A stretch of DNA of 64,000 bases from Flavobacteriales bacterium (GTDB taxonomy: Bacteria; Bacteroidota; Bacteroidia; CAIKAF01). Positions 1,226-10,621 of the stretch are shown here, piece by piece. The notes below the pieces were generated by a model that saw nothing but the letters and a program-made list of their open reading frames with translations, was not told the origin of the DNA and searched no databases. The DNA is taken from the NCBI GenBank assembly GCA_018401695.1, contig JAGYKD010000001.1, forward strand, positions 536,016 through 600,015. The letters run 5' to 3'. Each line of letters opens with the position of its first letter. Position 1 is the stretch's first letter. The translations under genes and the position numbers were made by a program.

Positions 1226-1424
1226 GTGGAAACCGTTAAAACGGTTGACCCGGACACGGCATTTCATATCGCCCACGGTTTAAACCGTGGGCTATGGGGC
1301 GTTTGCCGCGCTCATGGAATGGATTTATCCATTTCCTTTTGCACAAACGCGGTGGAAACCGTTAAAACGGTTGGCCCGGACACGGCATTTCATATAGCCC
1401 ACGGTTTAAACCGTGGGCTATGGG
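1226..1424. repeat. Two 73-bp direct repeats carrying GCCCACGG palindromes
   Basis: Two near-identical 73-bp units (1226-1298 and 1352-1424) each begin GTGGAAACCGTTAAAACGGT and each hold the perfect 22-bp palindrome made of GCCCACGGTTT and its complement (1271-1292 and 1397-1418). The same palindrome recurs near 11879, 14239, 16935 and 37733, mostly beside GC-rich hairpin elements. The 116-aa ORF over this stretch is a translation of the repeat. Between here and the array (1430-1576) I see nothing else. Confidence 0.8.
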
Positions 1425-1576: not shown

Positions 1577-4500
1577 GCCGAATGCTTACGAAATTTGGAG
1601 GGTCTTCTAGGGAACAGCAAAATCGTACCACCCCGATTATCTACAACAGTAGAAATTTGGAGGGTCTTCTAGGGACCCTTGTAAAACTTTTCTTCAAACT
1701 CAATCTACAACAGTAGAAATTTGGAGGGTCTTCTAGGGTAATTGAGGCTAACACAACTATACCTACATCTACAACAGTAGAAATTTGGAGGGTCTTCTAG
1801 GGCATAAACAAACCACCGTTAAGGATACATCTACAACAGTAGAAATTTGGAGGGTCTTCTAGGGTTTTTGAAATACAAATTTTTTGGTAAATCTACAACA
1901 GTAGAAATTTGGAGGGTCTTCTAGGGAACAAATTGCTGACTTCTGGATGGTCAAATCTACAACAGTAGAAATTTGGAGGGTCTTCTAGGGCTTGAATTTC
2001 ACCACCGTATCTTCCTCCATCTACAACAGTAGAAATTTGGAGGGTCTTCTAGGGGGGCGAAAAATTTCCTACCCTGAAAAAATCTACAACAGTAGAAATT
2101 TGGAGGGTCTTCTAGGGAATTGATACGAAAAGGCCCGAAAGTAGCATCTACAACAGTAGAAATTTGGAGGGTCTTCTAGGGCAATTCCCCAAGCTAACCG
2201 ACAGCCACATCTACAACAGTAGAAATTTGGAGGGTCTTCTAGGGTTAACTTCACCGGTGGAAGGTGGCCCCATCTACAACAGTAGAAATTTGGAGGGTCT
2301 TCTAGGGCAGGATTTGGCGGATTTGGCCGTAATTATCTACAACAGTAGAAATTTGGAGGGTCTTCTAGGGACCGTTTTTCTATGGGCATGGCCCAGATCT
2401 ACAACAGTAGAAATTTGGAGGGTCTTCTAGGGCTTAGGTTTCGATTGTTGACCATTCCAATCTACAACAGTAGAAATTTGGAGGGTCTTCTAGGGGTATA
2501 AGGCTTTTGGATATGCTGACCTTATCTACAACAGTAGAAATTTGGAGGGTCTTCTAGGGCAGGTGATGTTAGCAGCCGTTTATTATTAATCTACAACAGT
2601 AGAAATTTGGAGGGTCTTCTAGGGGATTAAAGGCTCCGGTTAGCAATGCATCTACAACAGTAGAAATTTGGAGGGTCTTCTAGGGAAAAAGCATGGTCTT
2701 GAAAGTTAGCAGATCTACAACAGTAGAAATTTGGAGGGTCTTCTAGGGCCATTGACATTACCGATGAATTTTTACATCTACAACAGTAGAAATTTGGAGG
2801 GTCTTCTAGGGGTCTCCCTTGAACCGCAACGGAGTGGTTATCTACAACAGTAGAAATTTGGAGGGTCTTCTAGGGACACCAATGCAGCAAAAATTTTGCT
2901 CATCTACAACAGTAGAAATTTGGAGGGTCTTCTAGGGGCCGCGCCAATCGCTTTGATATACTTCATCTACAACAGTAGAAATTTGGAGGGTCTTCTAGGG
3001 AACTTAAAGCCGCGCTCGAGAAGCTCATCTACAACAGTAGAAATTTGGAGGGTCTTCTAGGGTGTATTATAATAGGAACCAATGGAACCGATCTACAACA
3101 GTAGAAATTTGGAGGGTCTTCTAGGGCAACGGCGATTCAAGAGTAGGTTGGATATCTACAACAGTAGAAATTTGGAGGGTCTTCTAGGGCACGAGGCGGA
3201 CGACTTGACTACCTCATCTACAACAGTAGAAATTTGGAGGGTCTTCTAGGGAACAATCGAAAACAAAGAAACAATGAATCTACAACAGTAGAAATTTGGA
3301 GGGTCTTCTAGGGGTTGACCGTTGCCGCCACCACGACACCATCTACAACAGTAGAAATTTGGAGGGTCTTCTAGGGAATCCCGTAAAAATCCCGTATGGC
3401 ACAATCTACAACAGTAGAAATTTGGAGGGTCTTCTAGGGTTCTAGCAGCAGGTTAGAACCATCTTCATCTACAACAGTAGAAATTTGGAGGGTCTTCTAG
3501 GGCTTATGGCTATCCACGGGCTTTTCATATATCTACAACAGTAGAAATTTGGAGGGTCTTCTAGGGTGCACCCGACTTGCTTTGCCCGGCGTTATCTACA
3601 ACAGTAGAAATTTGGAGGGTCTTCTAGGGGGGCGGTTGTTCAGCTTGCGGAAGCCATCTACAACAGTAGAAATTTGGAGGGTCTTCTAGGGCGTGAGGAA
3701 TTTATGGCAACCATTCAATCTACAACAGTAGAAATTTGGAGGGTCTTCTAGGGGGAAATTCAAGCCATTCTTATCAACTTGATCTACAACAGTAGAAATT
3801 TGGAGGGTCTTCTAGGGGTGGAATTGAACGTGCCCCGACCATCATCTACAACAGTAGAAATTTGGAGGGTCTTCTAGGGAAAGCGAAGCGAGAAGCAGAA
3901 GCCAAAATCTACAACAGTAGAAATTTGGAGGGTCTTCTAGGGCTTGAACTGGTAATAACTGTGGCCGTCATCTACAACAGTAGAAATTTGGAGGGTCTTC
4001 TAGGGCGAAGCGGAGCAGCGCATTGAGCAGTAATCTACAACAGTAGAAATTTGGAGGGTCTTCTAGGGCTAAGGTACGCCATTTGCCTTTTCGGTATCTA
4101 CAACAGTAGAAATTTGGAGGGTCTTCTAGGGATTGGAATCGGGCTAGGCTATTCGACTATCTACAACAGTAGAAATTTGGAGGGTCTTCTAGGGTATGTC
4201 GTTTGCTTGTGCTTGTGTGAGATCTACAACAGTAGAAATTTGGAGGGTCTTCTAGGGCGATGTACAAATAACAAACAGCCCCGAAATCTACAACAGTAGA
4301 AATTTGGAGGGTCTTCTAGGGAAGAAGATGGAGAAAAATGGTTTGAAATCTACAACAGTAGAAATTTGGAGGGTCTTCTAGGGTTCTAGCAGCAGGTTGA
4401 AACCATCTTCATCTACAACAGTAGAAATTTGGAGGGTCTTCTAGGGTGGAAACATAGACCGACAAGATTCCGATCTACAACAGTAGAAATTTGGAGGGTC

Positions 4501-4820
4501 TTCTAGGGTTATCTGGTCAATGTCTTATGCCAAAATCTACAACAGTAGAAATTTGGAGGGTCTTCTAGGGATGTATATGCCACAAAATCAACTGAATCTA
4601 CAACAGTAGAAATTTGGAGGGTCTTCTAGGGGAAGTGAAAATAAACCTAATCATAAAAATCTACAACAGTAGAAATTTGGAGGGTCTTCTAGGGCCATTG
4701 AGAGAAGCTGCCATGAATTCAAATCTACAACAGTAGAAATTTGGAGGGTCTTCTAGGGTTATGGTCATGAAGGAGGAGGTCCAAATCTACAACAGTAGAA
4801 ATTTGGAGGGTCTTCTAGGG
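1577..4820 (-). CRISPR. Type V-A CRISPR array, 51 intact repeats plus one decayed terminal repeat
   Basis: The repeat is 36 bp and recurs about every 63 bp with unique 26-29-bp spacers. I counted 51 intact copies, the first at 1639 and the last at 4785-4820, plus one degenerate copy at 1577-1612, giving 51 spacers. On the minus strand the repeat ends AATTTCTACTGTTGTAGAT, whose UCUAC-UGUU-GUAGA hairpin is the crRNA handle recognised by Cas12a. This fixes transcription as leftward, with the leader on the cas2 side. The 5' half of the repeat (CCCTAGAAGACCCTCC) differs from the better-known GTCTAA-type repeats. Two spacers, at 3440-3466 and 4384-4410, are nearly identical. All ORFs called inside the array are artefacts. 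Confidence 0.99.
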
Positions 4821-4943
4821 AGCTAACCCTTGAAAACCCCAATTGAATTGAATTTTGGCATATAAAAGCCCTGCTTTTTGGCTTATTAGCATAATTCACC
4901 CTTAGATAACGCTCCATTTTTAATATTAAGACCGAGGTTTGCA
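4821..4943 (-). promoter_or_regulatory. CRISPR leader
   Basis: A 123-bp AT-rich gap lies between the cas2 stop codon and the first repeat on the transcribed strand. By position it is the leader where Cas1-Cas2 insert new spacers and where pre-crRNA transcription would start or pass through. On the minus strand it has a small inverted pair, AAAAAGC and GGCTTTTAT. No convincing promoter of its own is visible, so the array may be co-transcribed with cas2. The 60-aa ORF here is not supported. Confidence 0.6.
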
Positions 4944-5246
4944 TCAAACAATAATTAAATCAGAATCATCGTCTGCTGCAAAACCGTATTTTATGATTTT
5001 ACACTGTTGACTCATTCGAAACAAGTACACGCTGTCGCTTTGGCTAAAACTCTTGGCAAATTTGCCCTCTATGCCGGTTGCAATGTTTTCCAAAACGCGC
5101 GGACTGTTCCTTATTTCAAAGACCGAATATTGCAACCTATGCCCAAATTTACTTAAAAATTTGGCAAACCTAGTGCGCAATTTATCATCACTTATGTCGT
5201 ACGAAACCAATAAAGTAGGTCTAATTTCCTTCTGACTTTTTATCAT
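4944..5246 (-). CDS. cas2: CRISPR-associated endoribonuclease/integration protein Cas2
   Basis: A 100-residue protein of the usual Cas2 size. It has the ferredoxin-like first strand LLVSYDISDDKLRTRFAKFL with the conserved Asp after the strand, then RLQYSVFEIRNSP, the typical second strand. Cas2 dimers bridge two Cas1 dimers in the spacer-integration complex. Its ATG shares one base with the cas1 stop codon (TAATG), so translation is probably coupled. It is the last protein gene before the leader and array. Family assignment is by motif, length and position. Confidence 0.95.
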   Translation of the reverse strand: MIKSQKEIRPTLLVSYDISDDKLRTRFAKFLSKFGHRLQYSVFEIRNSPRVLENIATGIEGKFAKSFSQSDSVYLFRMSQQCKIIKYGFAADDDSDLIIV

Positions 5247-6217
5247 TATTCCTCTGGTATTATAGCAAAGTTGGGATACGAGCCAACCTCTGCTTCACGC
5301 ATGAAGTTGCGGTAATAGCTTTGTACATATATGAACATCCGCTCCTTTTCTTCCAATAAGGCTTCCAAAAGCCATTTAGTATATATCTTGTTCTGTTCCC
5401 AAGTCAATTGATAGCGCCCTTGGTCCTTCCGAAAATGGTCTGCCTTTAATTGCCCCAAATTCCAAGCCTTTCTCAACTTTCTATCTATAACACTCCTAAA
5501 GGGCTCCACCAAATCGCAAACCAAGCTTTTTCTTTGGTAAAACTCCTGATGGTATACCCCTTTATACACATCGAAACCAAAGGAGTCTAATATACCTTCC
5601 ATCATGCAAAACAAGTAGGTATAACCGATATCTAAAGTTGCATTTAGAGGGTCTACTTTAGTCCTTGGCTTTCTTCCCAACCAATCCATTCCCTCAAACC
5701 ACCGCTTAAAGAACATGCGCGATGCAGAACCTTCATAACCAAGAATGGAATGAAGTGCTTTACTTTCCCAAACTCCCTGCTTGTACTCCTCCAAGGCGTG
5801 TATGGCTTGCTTTTGATCATCACTCTTTTTCCGAAGGCTTTTTAATAATGCATTTTGATTCTCTATTTTATTTGAAATCAGTTTTTGCGCTACATCTAAA
5901 GCCTCATAAGCATACTGCCTTTTTCTTAGCAATACATTGCCTTCCGTTGGATTTCTAAAACTGCCATACAACCTATGCCCATAGCTAAAAAGCATGATGG
6001 GAAAACCAAATTTGCGGCTCCTCTCCAAAATGCCGGATGTAAGACTGGTTTGCCCAACAATCCATAATGCGAATAGTCGGTGGCAGCTGCGCTGCACCAA
6101 AACTTTACCTTCCGAATCTGAAATTAGAAGGTTGTCGTTTTTAAAGGAAACCTTTTGGCCTTCTCTCGCGTAGCAAACGACCAACTGGCGTTCTTTAAAA
6201 TCAGGCAAACTCAACAT
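5246..6217 (-). CDS. cas1: CRISPR-associated integrase Cas1
   Basis: A 323-residue Cas1. The C-terminal helical domain has the expected metal-binding region: GYTYLFCMMEGILDSFGF supplies the Glu, GVYHQEF the His, and CDLVEPFRSVIDRK the acidic DLxEPFR motif. The N-terminal beta part includes VVCYAREGQKVSFKND. Cas1 catalyses insertion of spacers at the leader end. The start codon lies inside the cas4 3' end (17-bp overlap), and the stop overlaps cas2 by one base, so cas4-cas1-cas2 behave as one translational unit. The length is normal for type V-A Cas1. Confidence 0.95.
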   Translation of the reverse strand: MLSLPDFKERQLVVCYAREGQKVSFKNDNLLISDSEGKVLVQRSCHRLFALWIVGQTSLTSGILERSRKFGFPIMLFSYGHRLYGSFRNPTEGNVLLRKRQYAYEALDVAQKLISNKIENQNALLKSLRKKSDDQKQAIHALEEYKQGVWESKALHSILGYEGSASRMFFKRWFEGMDWLGRKPRTKVDPLNATLDIGYTYLFCMMEGILDSFGFDVYKGVYHQEFYQRKSLVCDLVEPFRSVIDRKLRKAWNLGQLKADHFRKDQGRYQLTWEQNKIYTKWLLEALLEEKERMFIYVQSYYRNFMREAEVGSYPNFAIIPEE

Positions 6218-6770
6218 AGGCGTTCTGGTCGCATAATTCGGAATAAATACATCTTTTACACTTTTCGGGATTTGCCTTGAATGGTGCTTCCAGGCTAAAA
6301 CTCTTTAGATGCTCCAAAGTGCTCAAAAAACCATTCCAACGCTCCGGGGCATCATGAGGTAAAGGAACTTTATGCACGGTGTTTTGATCCATGGCATAAA
6401 GCTCCAACCGTCGCACCTTAAAACCCATTTCTTCCAGACAAACCATTTGCCCGTACAACTGGTATATGTACCCATCGTATATGCGTACAATATTTTTCTT
6501 CCGTTCTCTCAGCAAACCTTTTGCCTTAGAAAAGGTATCAATCTTACCACAAAGTTTGTAACGCTCCGAATACACTTCAACCCCTTGCAAAACATCCGAC
6601 CTAGTGCTATACCCGCCGGAATCGATGGCTTCATGCGCATAACTACCTGCCCATTGAGGTTTCTGTTTGTATAGGTTTGGATTGTACTTCCCATACAAAT
6701 GATGGAAATAAATGGACCTTGGGCAAAAAACAAAGTCATTAAGGTAGGCTATGGAAACATAAGACTCCAT
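6201..6770 (-). CDS. cas4: CRISPR-associated exonuclease Cas4
   Basis: A PD-(D/E)XK nuclease with an iron-sulfur cluster, which trims prespacers and helps select those with a PAM. I use the ATG at 6770 (MESYVSIAYLNDFVFCPR), which shares one base with the cas12a stop (TAATG). The ORF track's upstream start at 6809 lies inside cas12a. The first cluster cysteine is in FVFCPRSIYFHH and the other three in CKRCIYSELC near the C-terminus. The catalytic Asp is probably in LCGKIDTF, followed by LELYAMD and the QMVCLEE helix. With this start the protein is 189 residues, normal for Cas4. Confidence 0.93.
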   Translation of the reverse strand: MESYVSIAYLNDFVFCPRSIYFHHLYGKYNPNLYKQKPQWAGSYAHEAIDSGGYSTRSDVLQGVEVYSERYKLCGKIDTFSKAKGLLRERKKNIVRIYDGYIYQLYGQMVCLEEMGFKVRRLELYAMDQNTVHKVPLPHDAPERWNGFLSTLEHLKSFSLEAPFKANPEKCKRCIYSELCDQNAYVEFA

Positions 6771-9700
6771 TATCCTTGGTTTGACCTTTGCTGCATAAAG
6801 CAAAGCCAAGCGCTTTTGTCGAGCTTTGGAATCTCAAGCTTTCCATTGGGCTTTTCTTTTAATTGACCTAAAGTCATTAAGCCCTTCATGGCAATATGGT
6901 AGGCTCCATTGGCGTCTGCATCTAAAGGCAAGCCTTGCTTGGCCTTTCTAGTGTCAAAGGGTTCCATGCCCGGGTTTGCTACCGCACTAAGAATAAAATC
7001 TTCTTCCTCTGCACCTGATTTCCCGTTATTGTAACGCAATTGAGTTAGTGTTCTAAGAAAGAAGAACAATGTTTTGAAAAAGGACGCATCTTTTACCGCT
7101 TGGATATCCTCCAAGAGTTTTGAATTTCCGTTGTAGCTGATATTTTGCCTTGCCAATAAATCTTCAAATTGCTCTTTCAAGCGAATAGGGCTATACGCTC
7201 CTTTTCCATTGGTGCCCTCTGCTTTACTATTCCAATGCCAGCGCTCTTGATTGTCCATACGTAATACCCACTGGTGTTTACAACCCGCAGGATTTGACAA
7301 AAAGTCTCTTTGGTCTAAGACCCACTCAAATAAGTCTAGCTCGGCATGGTAGCTAATGCGTTTGAAATTTCCTATCCACTTTTGGGCAGCCTCCAAGTTG
7401 GTGTACTTCCACGGGACTTGGTTGATAAAGCCGGTGAGTGGATCTATTTTACTGGTGTAAGCGGCAGGTAAATAGAATAATATGCCTGACTGTTTCCCAA
7501 GTTTGGTAAAAGAGGTGAATTGATCTGTTAGCTGAAGGGCTTTTAACAAACCTCCCGGTTCCTGTGGGGCAACCTCTTTGAAGACCAAATGATTCAACTT
7601 TTCAATGAGCTTACGTTCAAACTTTTGATATACTTGCCTTTCAACTTTGAACCGTCCTCGTTTGAATCCAAAATTCAAGTCTTCTAAAATCACCACCGCA
7701 TTGTACTTAACCACCAATTGTGCTATTTCATGCACAATAATAGACATATAGCCCTCTTTGAGTTCTTTAATGGACTCGACGGCATCCCAATCTTTACGAG
7801 CGCTGTCCCTATTCCTTTCCTTTTCTAACAGCTTTCCTTGATAGTCGTGTGTATAAGGCTTTCCGTCTTTAACAAAACCATTGCCTATTTTATTAAGACT
7901 TCTTTGCTCTATTATTTCTCCTTTGGCATTTACTACGCTTAAGTACAACAAATGTCTTTCACCTCGATCCAAACCGATATAATGCAGCTCTTCCTTGTGC
8001 TTCTGAATGTACCTTAAAACCTGAGGCCCGACCGCTTGGTTTTTACGAGCATGGTTTAAGGTGATTGGGACATGAAACTGGAACTTATCAAAGGCAAAGC
8101 GTCTGTCCTTTACAATGGGATAATCAAATTTCCCTTTCAACTCTTCTCTGTGATGTCCTGTATCTAGCTGTTCTTGGGTGTACTCCAAGGATTTCTTCCG
8201 AAAAAAGACTTCCGCTTCTCCATTAAGCTTGTAAATAGGAGCCTTTAAGTTTTGAGGGTCAAATATTGCTTTCCAGTACATGGTATGCAAATTGGGTTTC
8301 CCCTTTGAATACTTAGAAAAATCCTTGTTGTAAATCTGGAAAAGATATAGCTTTCCACTCTCTACCAAATCATTGATGTAGCGTTTTGGGATGTCAACAA
8401 AATCAAGACAATACCCCTGCTCGGTTACTTCTTGGTAAAAGTCACTAACGTCTTTGTAGGCACTGGTTGGCTTAAATTTAAAATCAAAAACGTGCCAATC
8501 CGGGTGCTTTTGCGCCCCTTCTTTAAAATATTCAACGACCTGCTCAAAACCATTTCTTTGGAAATTTTCCTTGGTATGCTTTTTATGCGCATATGCATCC
8601 AGTACATCAAGCTTGGGTTTAATTAGCCCTTTTTCTTTTGAATACTCAGAGACTATTTGTTCAGGATCCTTTGTTTTTTCCTTAGCAATTCTTCTAAAGT
8701 ACGGCGCAGTAAAACATTTTGGAAGCATTTTGCTTGGATCGGGTAGTAGATTATACACCACCTTTTGCATAACGGGTTCCTCTTCTTTCGCCATAGGAGG
8801 CTTTACAAAGCTTTTATTATGCTTTCTATCCATAATTCCGAGAAAAAAATTGTTTCCTTCTCGGAAAAGCACACAAAGATTGTCCGTCTCTTTGGATTGA
8901 GACCAACCATCCAAAAGCGTTCCCTTATTAAAATTAAGCTTGAATTTTTCGTAGGAATAAGGCTTTTTGGTCATGTAGTTTCTTACTTTATTGTAAAGAG
9001 GAACTAAATCGTCCATTTCATGGTATAGGCTTAAAAAGTCGCCATAAAATGTTGGGGAGGCCTCGCATTGCTCAAGGTCAACAACCAAAGGTTTAATAAA
9101 ATGCAGCAAATCCAAACAGGCATCGAAATAGGCTTTAATGGCGTCTTTGGTCTCTTTGGTTTTTAATTTCGGGTTTTCATGGTTTTGCAATTCTCTTAAA
9201 ATATTTTCGGCATGCCCCCAAGCGGCTTTGGCAGTATCCACTTTGGTTTTTTCGGCCTCTTTGGTTAAACCATAATTAAAGTATTGCACCAAGGGCTTTT
9301 CCAGCCAAACATTCCATTTGGAAGCATTTTCTTTACCTTCCGCACCCATGTAGTGTCTCAGAGCAAGTTCGATTTCTTGAAAAGAAAAATAAGGTTGTTT
9401 TAACCACTTTTCTTTTGCCGTTAAGGCTTTTCCCTTGAGGGCATTCTCTTTAACATCATGCACATGGTTCCAATAACTGCTTAAGGCCTCCCCTAACACA
9501 GCCCAATGGCCAAGGGTAGCTTGAGAAACCGCACTTAAGGCATTGGCTTTATTGTTAACAAATAATTGATCTTGTTCCTCGTCTTTTAATTTGGTTAAGT
9601 GGGCCACCAATTGAGGGACAAATCCTTCAGGATTAAACCATTGGTCGCCTAATTTTAGTAAATCTTCTACTACAGTATTTTCGTCTCCATCTTCATAAGG

Positions 9701-10621
9701 CTCTGGTCTAAAACTACTGCTTTCCCTATCGCTCAAAATTTGCTTGTGGAGTGGGAACAAGGTAGGCAGCTCCCTGCTTTTAAGCTTATGCTTTTGCCTA
9801 TATAGGTTTATCAACATATTAAGCCCTGGTATTCCTTCTTCTTCTTCGCCCTTAACCCCTCCAAGAATGGTATTGTATTGATGTATGCCACTTCCATTTA
9901 AGCAAAGGTTAAACCCTTCTTCGGAAAAGAACTCCTCTACTCTTAAACCATCCAATTCCTTGCCCAAACGCTCTTGTATTTGAGGAAAAAATTGCTCAAA
10001 GACCTCCCTATGCTTTTCCACCAACAACAAATTCTGCATATATCTGGGTAGGTTTTCGTCAATCAACCTAAAGGCAATTGCCGTGCTTTTATCCTCAGCT
10101 ACGTACAAATTTTTCCGGTTCTCATGAAAACCTTTAAAATAAGTTGTAAAATTCCCGAACTCTTCAAGCAACATGGTTGCCTCTTCATGCATACCTTGCT
10201 CTCTTAGGAAATCAGGCAAGTCTGCTTTGATGAGTTCTTTATCAAACAAGCGTTTGTAAAATGTCTTATTTGGCTCATCTTTGAAAAAGCTACTGATTTT
10301 TTTTCGCAAGTCACTTTTAAGCTTTTTGAAAGCCTCCTCATCTTTCTCATTCCTCTGTTTATTTTCAAAAAATACCCGGTATTCACTTAACCCTTCCAAT
10401 TTGGGCTCCCGCAACACCTTTTCAATAAAAGCTTTATGGTACAAATCAATCCACTCCTTTACTTGCTTGTAGCGATTGGCCTTTAACTCATCGGCCTCAA
10501 GTAAGCCGTTCTTCTCAATATGCTCCAATGTCCTGCCTTGCGGAATCAATTCAAATCGCAGGGTCTTTTGTAGCTGGAACTGATGCGTTAAATTCTGAAA
10601 AATGAATTTGGATGTATTCAT
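6770..10621 (-). CDS. cas12a: Type V-A CRISPR effector nuclease Cas12a (Cpf1)
   Basis: A full-length 1283-residue Cas12a. The N-terminus has the WED motif LQKTLRFELIPQGRTLEHI (19-36). The REC lobe fills about 40-560. The crRNA-processing segment IVKDRRFAFDKFQFHVP contains K838 and H850, in place of the processing residues of FnCas12a. The RuvC triad is intact: D885 in GLDRGERHLLY, E980 in VVILEDLNFGFKRGR and D1236 in DADANGAYHIA. A Nuc-domain Arg (R1196, TLTQLRYNN) is present. The enzyme should process its own crRNAs and cut DNA beside a T-rich PAM. It is first of the cas genes, 53 bp after the WYL gene. No frameshift or missing catalytic residue was seen. Residue numbers were counted by hand. 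Confidence 0.98.
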   Translation of the reverse strand: MNTSKFIFQNLTHQFQLQKTLRFELIPQGRTLEHIEKNGLLEADELKANRYKQVKEWIDLYHKAFIEKVLREPKLEGLSEYRVFFENKQRNEKDEEAFKKLKSDLRKKISSFFKDEPNKTFYKRLFDKELIKADLPDFLREQGMHEEATMLLEEFGNFTTYFKGFHENRKNLYVAEDKSTAIAFRLIDENLPRYMQNLLLVEKHREVFEQFFPQIQERLGKELDGLRVEEFFSEEGFNLCLNGSGIHQYNTILGGVKGEEEEGIPGLNMLINLYRQKHKLKSRELPTLFPLHKQILSDRESSSFRPEPYEDGDENTVVEDLLKLGDQWFNPEGFVPQLVAHLTKLKDEEQDQLFVNNKANALSAVSQATLGHWAVLGEALSSYWNHVHDVKENALKGKALTAKEKWLKQPYFSFQEIELALRHYMGAEGKENASKWNVWLEKPLVQYFNYGLTKEAEKTKVDTAKAAWGHAENILRELQNHENPKLKTKETKDAIKAYFDACLDLLHFIKPLVVDLEQCEASPTFYGDFLSLYHEMDDLVPLYNKVRNYMTKKPYSYEKFKLNFNKGTLLDGWSQSKETDNLCVLFREGNNFFLGIMDRKHNKSFVKPPMAKEEEPVMQKVVYNLLPDPSKMLPKCFTAPYFRRIAKEKTKDPEQIVSEYSKEKGLIKPKLDVLDAYAHKKHTKENFQRNGFEQVVEYFKEGAQKHPDWHVFDFKFKPTSAYKDVSDFYQEVTEQGYCLDFVDIPKRYINDLVESGKLYLFQIYNKDFSKYSKGKPNLHTMYWKAIFDPQNLKAPIYKLNGEAEVFFRKKSLEYTQEQLDTGHHREELKGKFDYPIVKDRRFAFDKFQFHVPITLNHARKNQAVGPQVLRYIQKHKEELHYIGLDRGERHLLYLSVVNAKGEIIEQRSLNKIGNGFVKDGKPYTHDYQGKLLEKERNRDSARKDWDAVESIKELKEGYMSIIVHEIAQLVVKYNAVVILEDLNFGFKRGRFKVERQVYQKFERKLIEKLNHLVFKEVAPQEPGGLLKALQLTDQFTSFTKLGKQSGILFYLPAAYTSKIDPLTGFINQVPWKYTNLEAAQKWIGNFKRISYHAELDLFEWVLDQRDFLSNPAGCKHQWVLRMDNQERWHWNSKAEGTNGKGAYSPIRLKEQFEDLLARQNISYNGNSKLLEDIQAVKDASFFKTLFFFLRTLTQLRYNNGKSGAEEEDFILSAVANPGMEPFDTRKAKQGLPLDADANGAYHIAMKGLMTLGQLKEKPNGKLEIPKLDKSAWLCFMQQRSNQG

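What the first reader, a model, noticed from the sequence alone, without database searches (positions are those of the whole stretch)
3440..4410. Two near-identical spacers, seven and twenty-two from the leader
The spacer at 3440-3466 and the one at 4384-4410 are the same 27-nt sequence except for two adjacent bases (AG vs GA). On the crRNA strand these are bases 11-12, outside the seed. In one frame both read EDG[S/F]NLLLE, so the target may be coding DNA. This looks like two separate acquisitions from variant relatives of one phage or plasmid, or re-acquisition after escape.
Basis: partly seen in the sequence, partly recalled or inferred. Interest (0 to 1): 0.7.

Follow-up and report, generated by a model that had tools for sequence, protein, structure and literature searches.

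The report
Twin Cas12a spacers against phage tag
A bacterium's Cas12a immune array holds two spacers that differ at one codon only; both read as a short peptide motif that many unrelated tailed phages carry at the end of a structural protein, so the pair most likely records two encounters with variants of one phage lineage at the motif's variable spot.

Summary
Confirmed: in a complete type V-A (Cas12a) locus, spacers 7 and 22 of the array share 25 of 27 bases and differ by CT/TC at crRNA positions 11-12. No other pair among the 50 spacers comes close. No exact protospacer was found in the own genome, related genomes, IMG/VR, INPHARED phages or PLSDB. In their best open frame the spacers read EDG[F/S]NLLLE. 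Allowing any codon at the differing position, this peptide is strongly over-represented in virus contigs (77; reversed-peptide control 7 against 44 for the matched half). It belongs to an apparently undescribed motif, LLLEDGxxLLLE(D/S/T)Gxx(L/I)LLE, fused to the C-termini of unrelated virion proteins (head closure, attachment, tail) and almost always placed directly before a fibre-type gene whose product starts "KISxLT". Ser and Phe are two of the three commonest residues at the differing position. The pair therefore most likely records two independent acquisitions at one PAM site from sister phages differing in this variable codon; array duplication or mutation is unlikely. Re-acquisition after escape is possible but untestable here. 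The spacer pair itself is ordinary CRISPR biology. The targeted tag, a possible docking peptide for swappable fibres, is the more interesting result; its function is inferred.

The parts
3440..3466 (-). Spacer 22: GAAGATGGTTCTAACCTGCTGCTAGAA, reads EDGSNLLLE
4384..4410 (-). Spacer 7: GAAGATGGTTTCAACCTGCTGCTAGAA, reads EDGFNLLLE
1639..4820 (-). CRISPR array: 51 identical 36-nt repeats (crRNA sense CCCTAGAAGACCCTCCAAATTTCTACTGTTGTAGAT), 50 spacers of 25-29 nt
1585..1612 (-). Decayed terminal repeat at the leader-distal end (a further spacer lies at 1613-1638)
4821..4943 (-). Presumed leader between cas2 and the first repeat
   Evidence: position only; inferred
4944..5246 (-). cas2
   Evidence: TIGR01573, E 4.4e-12
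5246..6217 (-). cas1, type V
   Evidence: TIGR04329, E 4.7e-112
6201..6809 (-). cas4, type V
   Evidence: TIGR04328, E 6.9e-60
6770..10621 (-). cas12a (Cpf1), 1283 aa
   Evidence: TIGR04330, 1134.9 bits
1739..1766 (-). Spacer 49: antisense to a foreign dnaK (LIEANTTIPT), 2-3 mismatches, TTTA in front in 5 of 6 genomes; the only PAM evidence for this system

Best explanation
Spacers 7 and 22 are two independent Cas4-Cas1-Cas2 acquisitions at the same PAM site of two sister phages (or one phage lineage at two times). The site lies in the coding strand of a virion-protein gene whose C-terminus carries the LLLEDGxxLLLE tag. Spacer 22 (older) took the Ser variant (TCT), spacer 7 (newer) the Phe variant (TTC). 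The codon path TCT to TTT to TTC needs two single steps, and the TTT form is seen in the closest virus hit. The two crRNAs together cover both alleles. Shown: the pair, its position, the reading frame, the viral motif and its variable residue. Inferred: the actual protospacers, their PAM, the two acquisition events and the immune effect.
For: Complete V-A locus and confirmed pair. EDGxNLLLE-coding DNA: 44 IMG/VR contigs with GAT and 33 with GAC, against 7 for a reversed-peptide control matched to the GAT pattern. No hit in 394 other genomes of the class (about 0.3 expected by chance, so a weak negative). Of 52 distinct 27-mers in ORFs of at least 40 aa, residue x is D 11, S 11, F 9; 16 of 52 lie 17-18 aa before the stop. 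The tagged proteins fall into many unrelated groups and include Hc1, Hc2, Hc3, tail terminator, attachment and tail proteins. Homologues of one gene differ at x: L065 (A) and L076 (D) at 93% identity, L138 (F) and L062 (D) at 59%. Two unrelated motif copies would agree at all 24 other bases with probability about 1.5e-4 (1 of 1326 pairs seen), so the two sources are close relatives. Spacer neighbours 6/8 and 21/23 are unrelated and the 51 repeats carry no change. Spacers rarely mutate once acquired (stated in PMC10132644).
Against: No protospacer found: no exact hit. A scan designed to find everything within 2 mismatches outside the variable pair returned one, L138, flanked by AACT rather than TTTV. 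None of the 297 phylum genomes searched carries the double tag, so a Bacteroidota phage with it is not shown. In the pattern search, x was free by design; independent support comes only from homologue alignments and from the second repeat of the tag.
Confidence: 0.66

Rival explanations
1. Both spacers come from one phage genome that holds two copies of the motif (tandem repeat units or two tagged genes), each with its own PAM.
For: The tag is itself an 8-residue repeat; some proteins have 2-3 units, e.g. LLLEDGSDLLLEDGTNLLLED in L042.
Against: In held loci the strict 9-mer occurs once per contig and no contig shows the tag in more than one gene (contigs are partial). Spacer DNA ends CTGCTGCTAGAA; if homogenised tandem units preceded each copy the flank would be GCTA, not TTTV.
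Confidence: 0.15
2. Re-acquisition after escape: the two-base change in the phage weakened spacer 22, and the host then took spacer 7 from the escape mutant. This is a special case of the best explanation rather than a separate one.
For: Order fits (22 older, 7 newer). Mid-target mismatches reduced FnCas12a protection at low expression (PMC10132644).
Against: Mid-target mismatches had little effect at high expression (same paper). The study of V-A/V-B adaptation reports no evidence of priming (PMC9419969). Two changes were needed, one of them synonymous, and x varies anyway among phages.
Confidence: 0.2
3. Duplication of a spacer inside the array followed by mutation.
For: The two spacers share exact ends and 25 of 27 bases.
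Against: Fourteen unrelated spacers lie between them, flanking spacers differ, 51 repeats are unchanged, and both changes fall in one codon at the motif's variable residue.
Confidence: 0.05
4. The match to the viral tag is coincidence and the spacers come from some other coding or non-coding DNA.
For: No exact protospacer; a TTTV PAM was not seen beside the motif except in L018.
Against: Six-fold enrichment over control, fixed distance to the stop codon, and S/F among the commonest x residues.
Confidence: 0.14

Closest known systems
Type V-A CRISPR-Cas (Cas12a with Cas4, Cas1, Cas2), Francisella-type
   Same: Gene order, family hits, 36-nt repeat ending AATTTCTACTGTTGTAGAT, spacers of 25-29 nt; TTTA beside the dnaK match of spacer 49.
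   Different: Nothing essential. Nearest Cas12a found in named genomes is 38% identical.
Variant spacers against alleles of one phage locus (known from many CRISPR arrays; general knowledge)
   Same: Near-identical spacers, leader order giving time order.
   Different: Here the difference sits in a variable codon of a short motif shared by many viruses, and the target is known only by homology.
Phage neck and connector families: Hc1 (PF05521, phrog_25), Hc2 (PF11649, phrog_460), Hc3 (phrog_578), tail terminator (PF13554), head-tail attachment (PF05354)
   Same: Bodies of tag-bearing proteins match these; the PF05354 match is below Pfam's cut-off.
   Different: In these proteins the LLLEDG tag mostly lies outside the matched stretch, and no Pfam or PHROGs model tested is specific for it. 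A cultured homologue, S-LBS1 A08, lacks it.

Membership tests
Type V-A CRISPR-Cas | Cas12a effector | tested here: met
   TIGR04330, 1134.9 bits against cut-off 300
Type V-A CRISPR-Cas | Cas4, Cas1 and Cas2 of the V-A type next to the array | tested here: met
   TIGR04328, TIGR04329, TIGR01573
Type V-A CRISPR-Cas | Repeat 3' end forming the Cas12a handle, identical repeats | tested here: met
   AATTTCTACTGTTGTAGAT; 51 identical repeats
Type V-A CRISPR-Cas | TTTV PAM on protospacers | tested here: inconclusive
   Only spacer 49 (dnaK, 2-3 mismatches) has a credible match: TTTA in 5 of 6 genomes. None for spacers 7 and 22
Allelic (variant) spacer pair | Two protospacers at the same gene position in related phages | tested here: inconclusive
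   No protospacer found; homologues vary at the same residue
Allelic (variant) spacer pair | Not a segmental duplication within the array | tested here: met
   Neighbouring spacers unrelated
LLLEDG-tagged virion protein gene as target | Spacer reads in frame as the tag | tested here: met
   EDG[FS]NLLLE, both spacers
LLLEDG-tagged virion protein gene as target | Exact DNA match in such a gene | tested here: not met
   Closest 2 mismatches (L138) and 3 mismatches (L045/L053); the target is therefore assigned by peptide only

The most novel reading that the evidence does not exclude
The spacers point to an undescribed plug-and-socket module of tailed phages: a C-terminal LLLEDGxxLLLE tag, added to whichever virion protein gene lies upstream, docks the KISxLT N-terminus of the fibre encoded directly downstream, so that fibres can be swapped between unrelated virions. 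CRISPR samples the conserved tag inside an otherwise variable module.
Probability: 0.35. Interest if true: 0.75.

Novelty: new member of a known kind. Interest (0 to 1): 0.5.

Why it matters
The pair is a clean small record of one host meeting variants of one phage lineage, with the time order preserved. More important, following it exposed a short motif, apparently unnamed in the papers and family libraries searched, that sits on the C-termini of unrelated phage neck and tail proteins just before fibre-type genes. If it is a docking tag, it would explain how phages exchange fibres and would give a general way to predict which protein holds which fibre.

Tried and rejected
Exact and near-exact protospacer searches in own genome, order, IMG/VR, GTDB contigs, INPHARED and PLSDB: none. 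Diversity-generating retroelement as cause of the codon change: considered, rejected without a test because only one codon differs. Other spacers of the array in the motif-bearing virus loci: none within 5 mismatches. LLLE or EDG spacers in other Cas12a arrays of the class and in L061: none. Searches used a pattern one base short (out of frame); their zero results are void and not used. The genome part was repeated correctly (none); the virus scan could not be repeated (cap reached). Structure predictions of two tag proteins were of very low confidence (pLDDT 46.5 and 35.8) and were not used. Short tag peptides by tblastn against phages gave nothing, probably because of length or low-complexity masking. 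A weak match of spacer 33 to a conserved gene (5 mismatches, no TTTV) was judged chance.

Full report
WHAT IS THERE. The window carries a complete type V-A locus on the minus strand: cas12a 10621-6770, cas4, cas1, cas2 (to 4944), then about 120 bases of presumed leader and the array from 4820 down to 1639. The array has 51 identical repeats and 50 spacers; a decayed repeat closes the distal end, which together with the repeat's 3' handle fixes the orientation. The next-best spacer pair scores 13 against 23.

PROTOSPACERS. No exact match to GAAGATGGTTNNAACCTGCTGCTAGAA exists outside the array in the own genome, 15 relatives of the order, IMG/VR or GTDB contigs (the last with a slightly relaxed pattern). 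BLAST of the whole array found nothing convincing in INPHARED or PLSDB. Three drop-out patterns that together find any IMG/VR sequence within two mismatches outside the variable pair gave one: L138, GAAGATGGTTTTAACCTGCTGCAAGAA, two mismatches to spacer 7, preceded by AACT.

THE PEPTIDE. In the frame EDG[F/S]NLLLE the pattern with a free codon at x hits 44 (GAT) and 33 (GAC) IMG/VR contigs. The reversed peptide with equal degeneracy (GAT form) hits 7. The hits are mostly not random: they show a repeat LLLEDGxxLLLE[DST]Gxx[LI]LLE, often ending at the stop codon. With the motif masked, the proteins fall into about 34 groups, several of them short chance ORFs. Among 52 distinct 27-mers in ORFs of at least 40 aa, 16 lie exactly 17 or 18 residues before the stop; x is D 11, S 11, F 9, A 5, G 4 and others. 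Tag-bearing proteins match head closure Hc1, Hc2 and Hc3, tail terminator, head-tail attachment, minor tail and central tail fibre families. No held paper matching LLLED plus phage deals with it.

THE VARIABLE CODON. x was free by design in the search, so its variability there proves little. Independent support: near-identical homologues differ at x (L065 Ala and L076 Asp at 93% identity; L138 Phe and L062 Asp at 59%), and in the second repeat, which the pattern did not constrain, the two residues after DG vary while the flanks hold. Ser TCT to Phe TTC needs two single changes through TTT, the codon in L138. Two unrelated copies would agree at the other 24 bases with probability about 1.5e-4, so the two sources are close relatives.

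HOW IT AROSE. Duplication inside the array is unlikely: neighbours differ and no repeat has changed. Spacers are reported to be fixed once acquired (PMC10132644). V-A acquisition is guided to TTTV by Cas4 and no priming was seen in a heterologous test (PMC9419969), so the shared ends are explained by the same PAM used twice. A 40-kb phage has roughly 1,200 TTTV sites (my estimate), so hitting one site twice in 50 spacers is uncommon but not astonishing if many spacers come from one lineage. Escape-driven re-acquisition is possible: mid-target mismatches had weak or strong effects depending on Cas12a level.

PAM. Spacer 49 is antisense to dnaK (LIEANTTIPT), 2-3 mismatches in six genomes of the class, TTTA in front in five. 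The host's own dnaK differs at ten positions, so this is a foreign dnaK, not the present self gene. It is the only PAM evidence for this system.

WHAT THE TAG MAY DO. Of 23 distinct C-terminal tags, 20 are followed at once by a gene whose product begins M..K[ILVT][ST]xL (one more, L074, is close), against 51 of 2158 ORFs in the same loci. Several of these next genes match tail fibre, collar or YadA-head families. Other KISxLT genes in the same phages have no tag upstream, so the link is one-way. A cultured homologue of the tagged attachment protein (S-LBS1 A08) has no tag and no KISxLT neighbour; another (S-CBS1 gp09) has a different DGG-type tail and a different fibre type next door. This fits a docking tag matched to the neighbouring fibre, but it rests on few examples, a pattern defined after seeing the data, related members counted apart, and no structure (searches failed). 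Translational coupling is a simpler alternative: many tags end TTGGAG or CTGGAG just before the next ATG.

VERDICT. Observation confirmed; interpretation partly supported. The pair is a normal allelic spacer pair, assigned to its target by peptide homology only.

Noticed in passing
window 1739-1766 (spacer 49); L109, L111, L158-L161: Spacer 49 is antisense to dnaK at LIEANTTIPT, with 2-3 mismatches and mostly a TTTA PAM in six genomes of the host's class; the host's own dnaK differs at 10 of 28 bases. A CRISPR spacer from a foreign housekeeping gene (or a mobile dnaK).
   Followed up: partly
L019, L038, L041, L044, L045, L056, L062, L065, L066, L067, L069, L076, L080, L083, L087, L138, L149, L150, L154, L156: C-terminal LLLEDG tags on unrelated virion proteins stand directly before a gene starting KISxLT (20 of 23 distinct tags; background 51 of 2158 ORFs).
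   Followed up: partly
L176 1453-2480 (Synechococcus phage S-CBS1 gp09-gp10): A homologue of a tagged attachment protein ends in VLDGDG..VVMDGGAP..VLDDGAP and is followed by a fibre with an N-terminus FKLRNGTAAEWTAANP: perhaps a second tag and anchor pair.
   Followed up: no
window 4322-4347 (spacer 8): Next to spacer 7, spacer 8 read on its other strand gives EDGEKWFE, faintly like the tag; probably chance.
   Followed up: no
Leptospira phages KF114879, KF114880, KX656785: Matches of about 22 nt to the Cas12a repeat (five pieces each): these phages may carry a Cas12a-type array.
   Followed up: no
window 1226-1309 and 1352-1435: An 84-nt direct repeat (92%) with inner inverted repeats (AACCGTTAAAACGGTT, GCCCACGGTTTAAACCGTGGGC) beside the distal end of the array.
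   Followed up: no
L061 15980-16068: The array of a 38%-identical Cas12a relative carries the same spacer twice in a row, a true tandem duplication, unlike the pair studied here.
   Followed up: no
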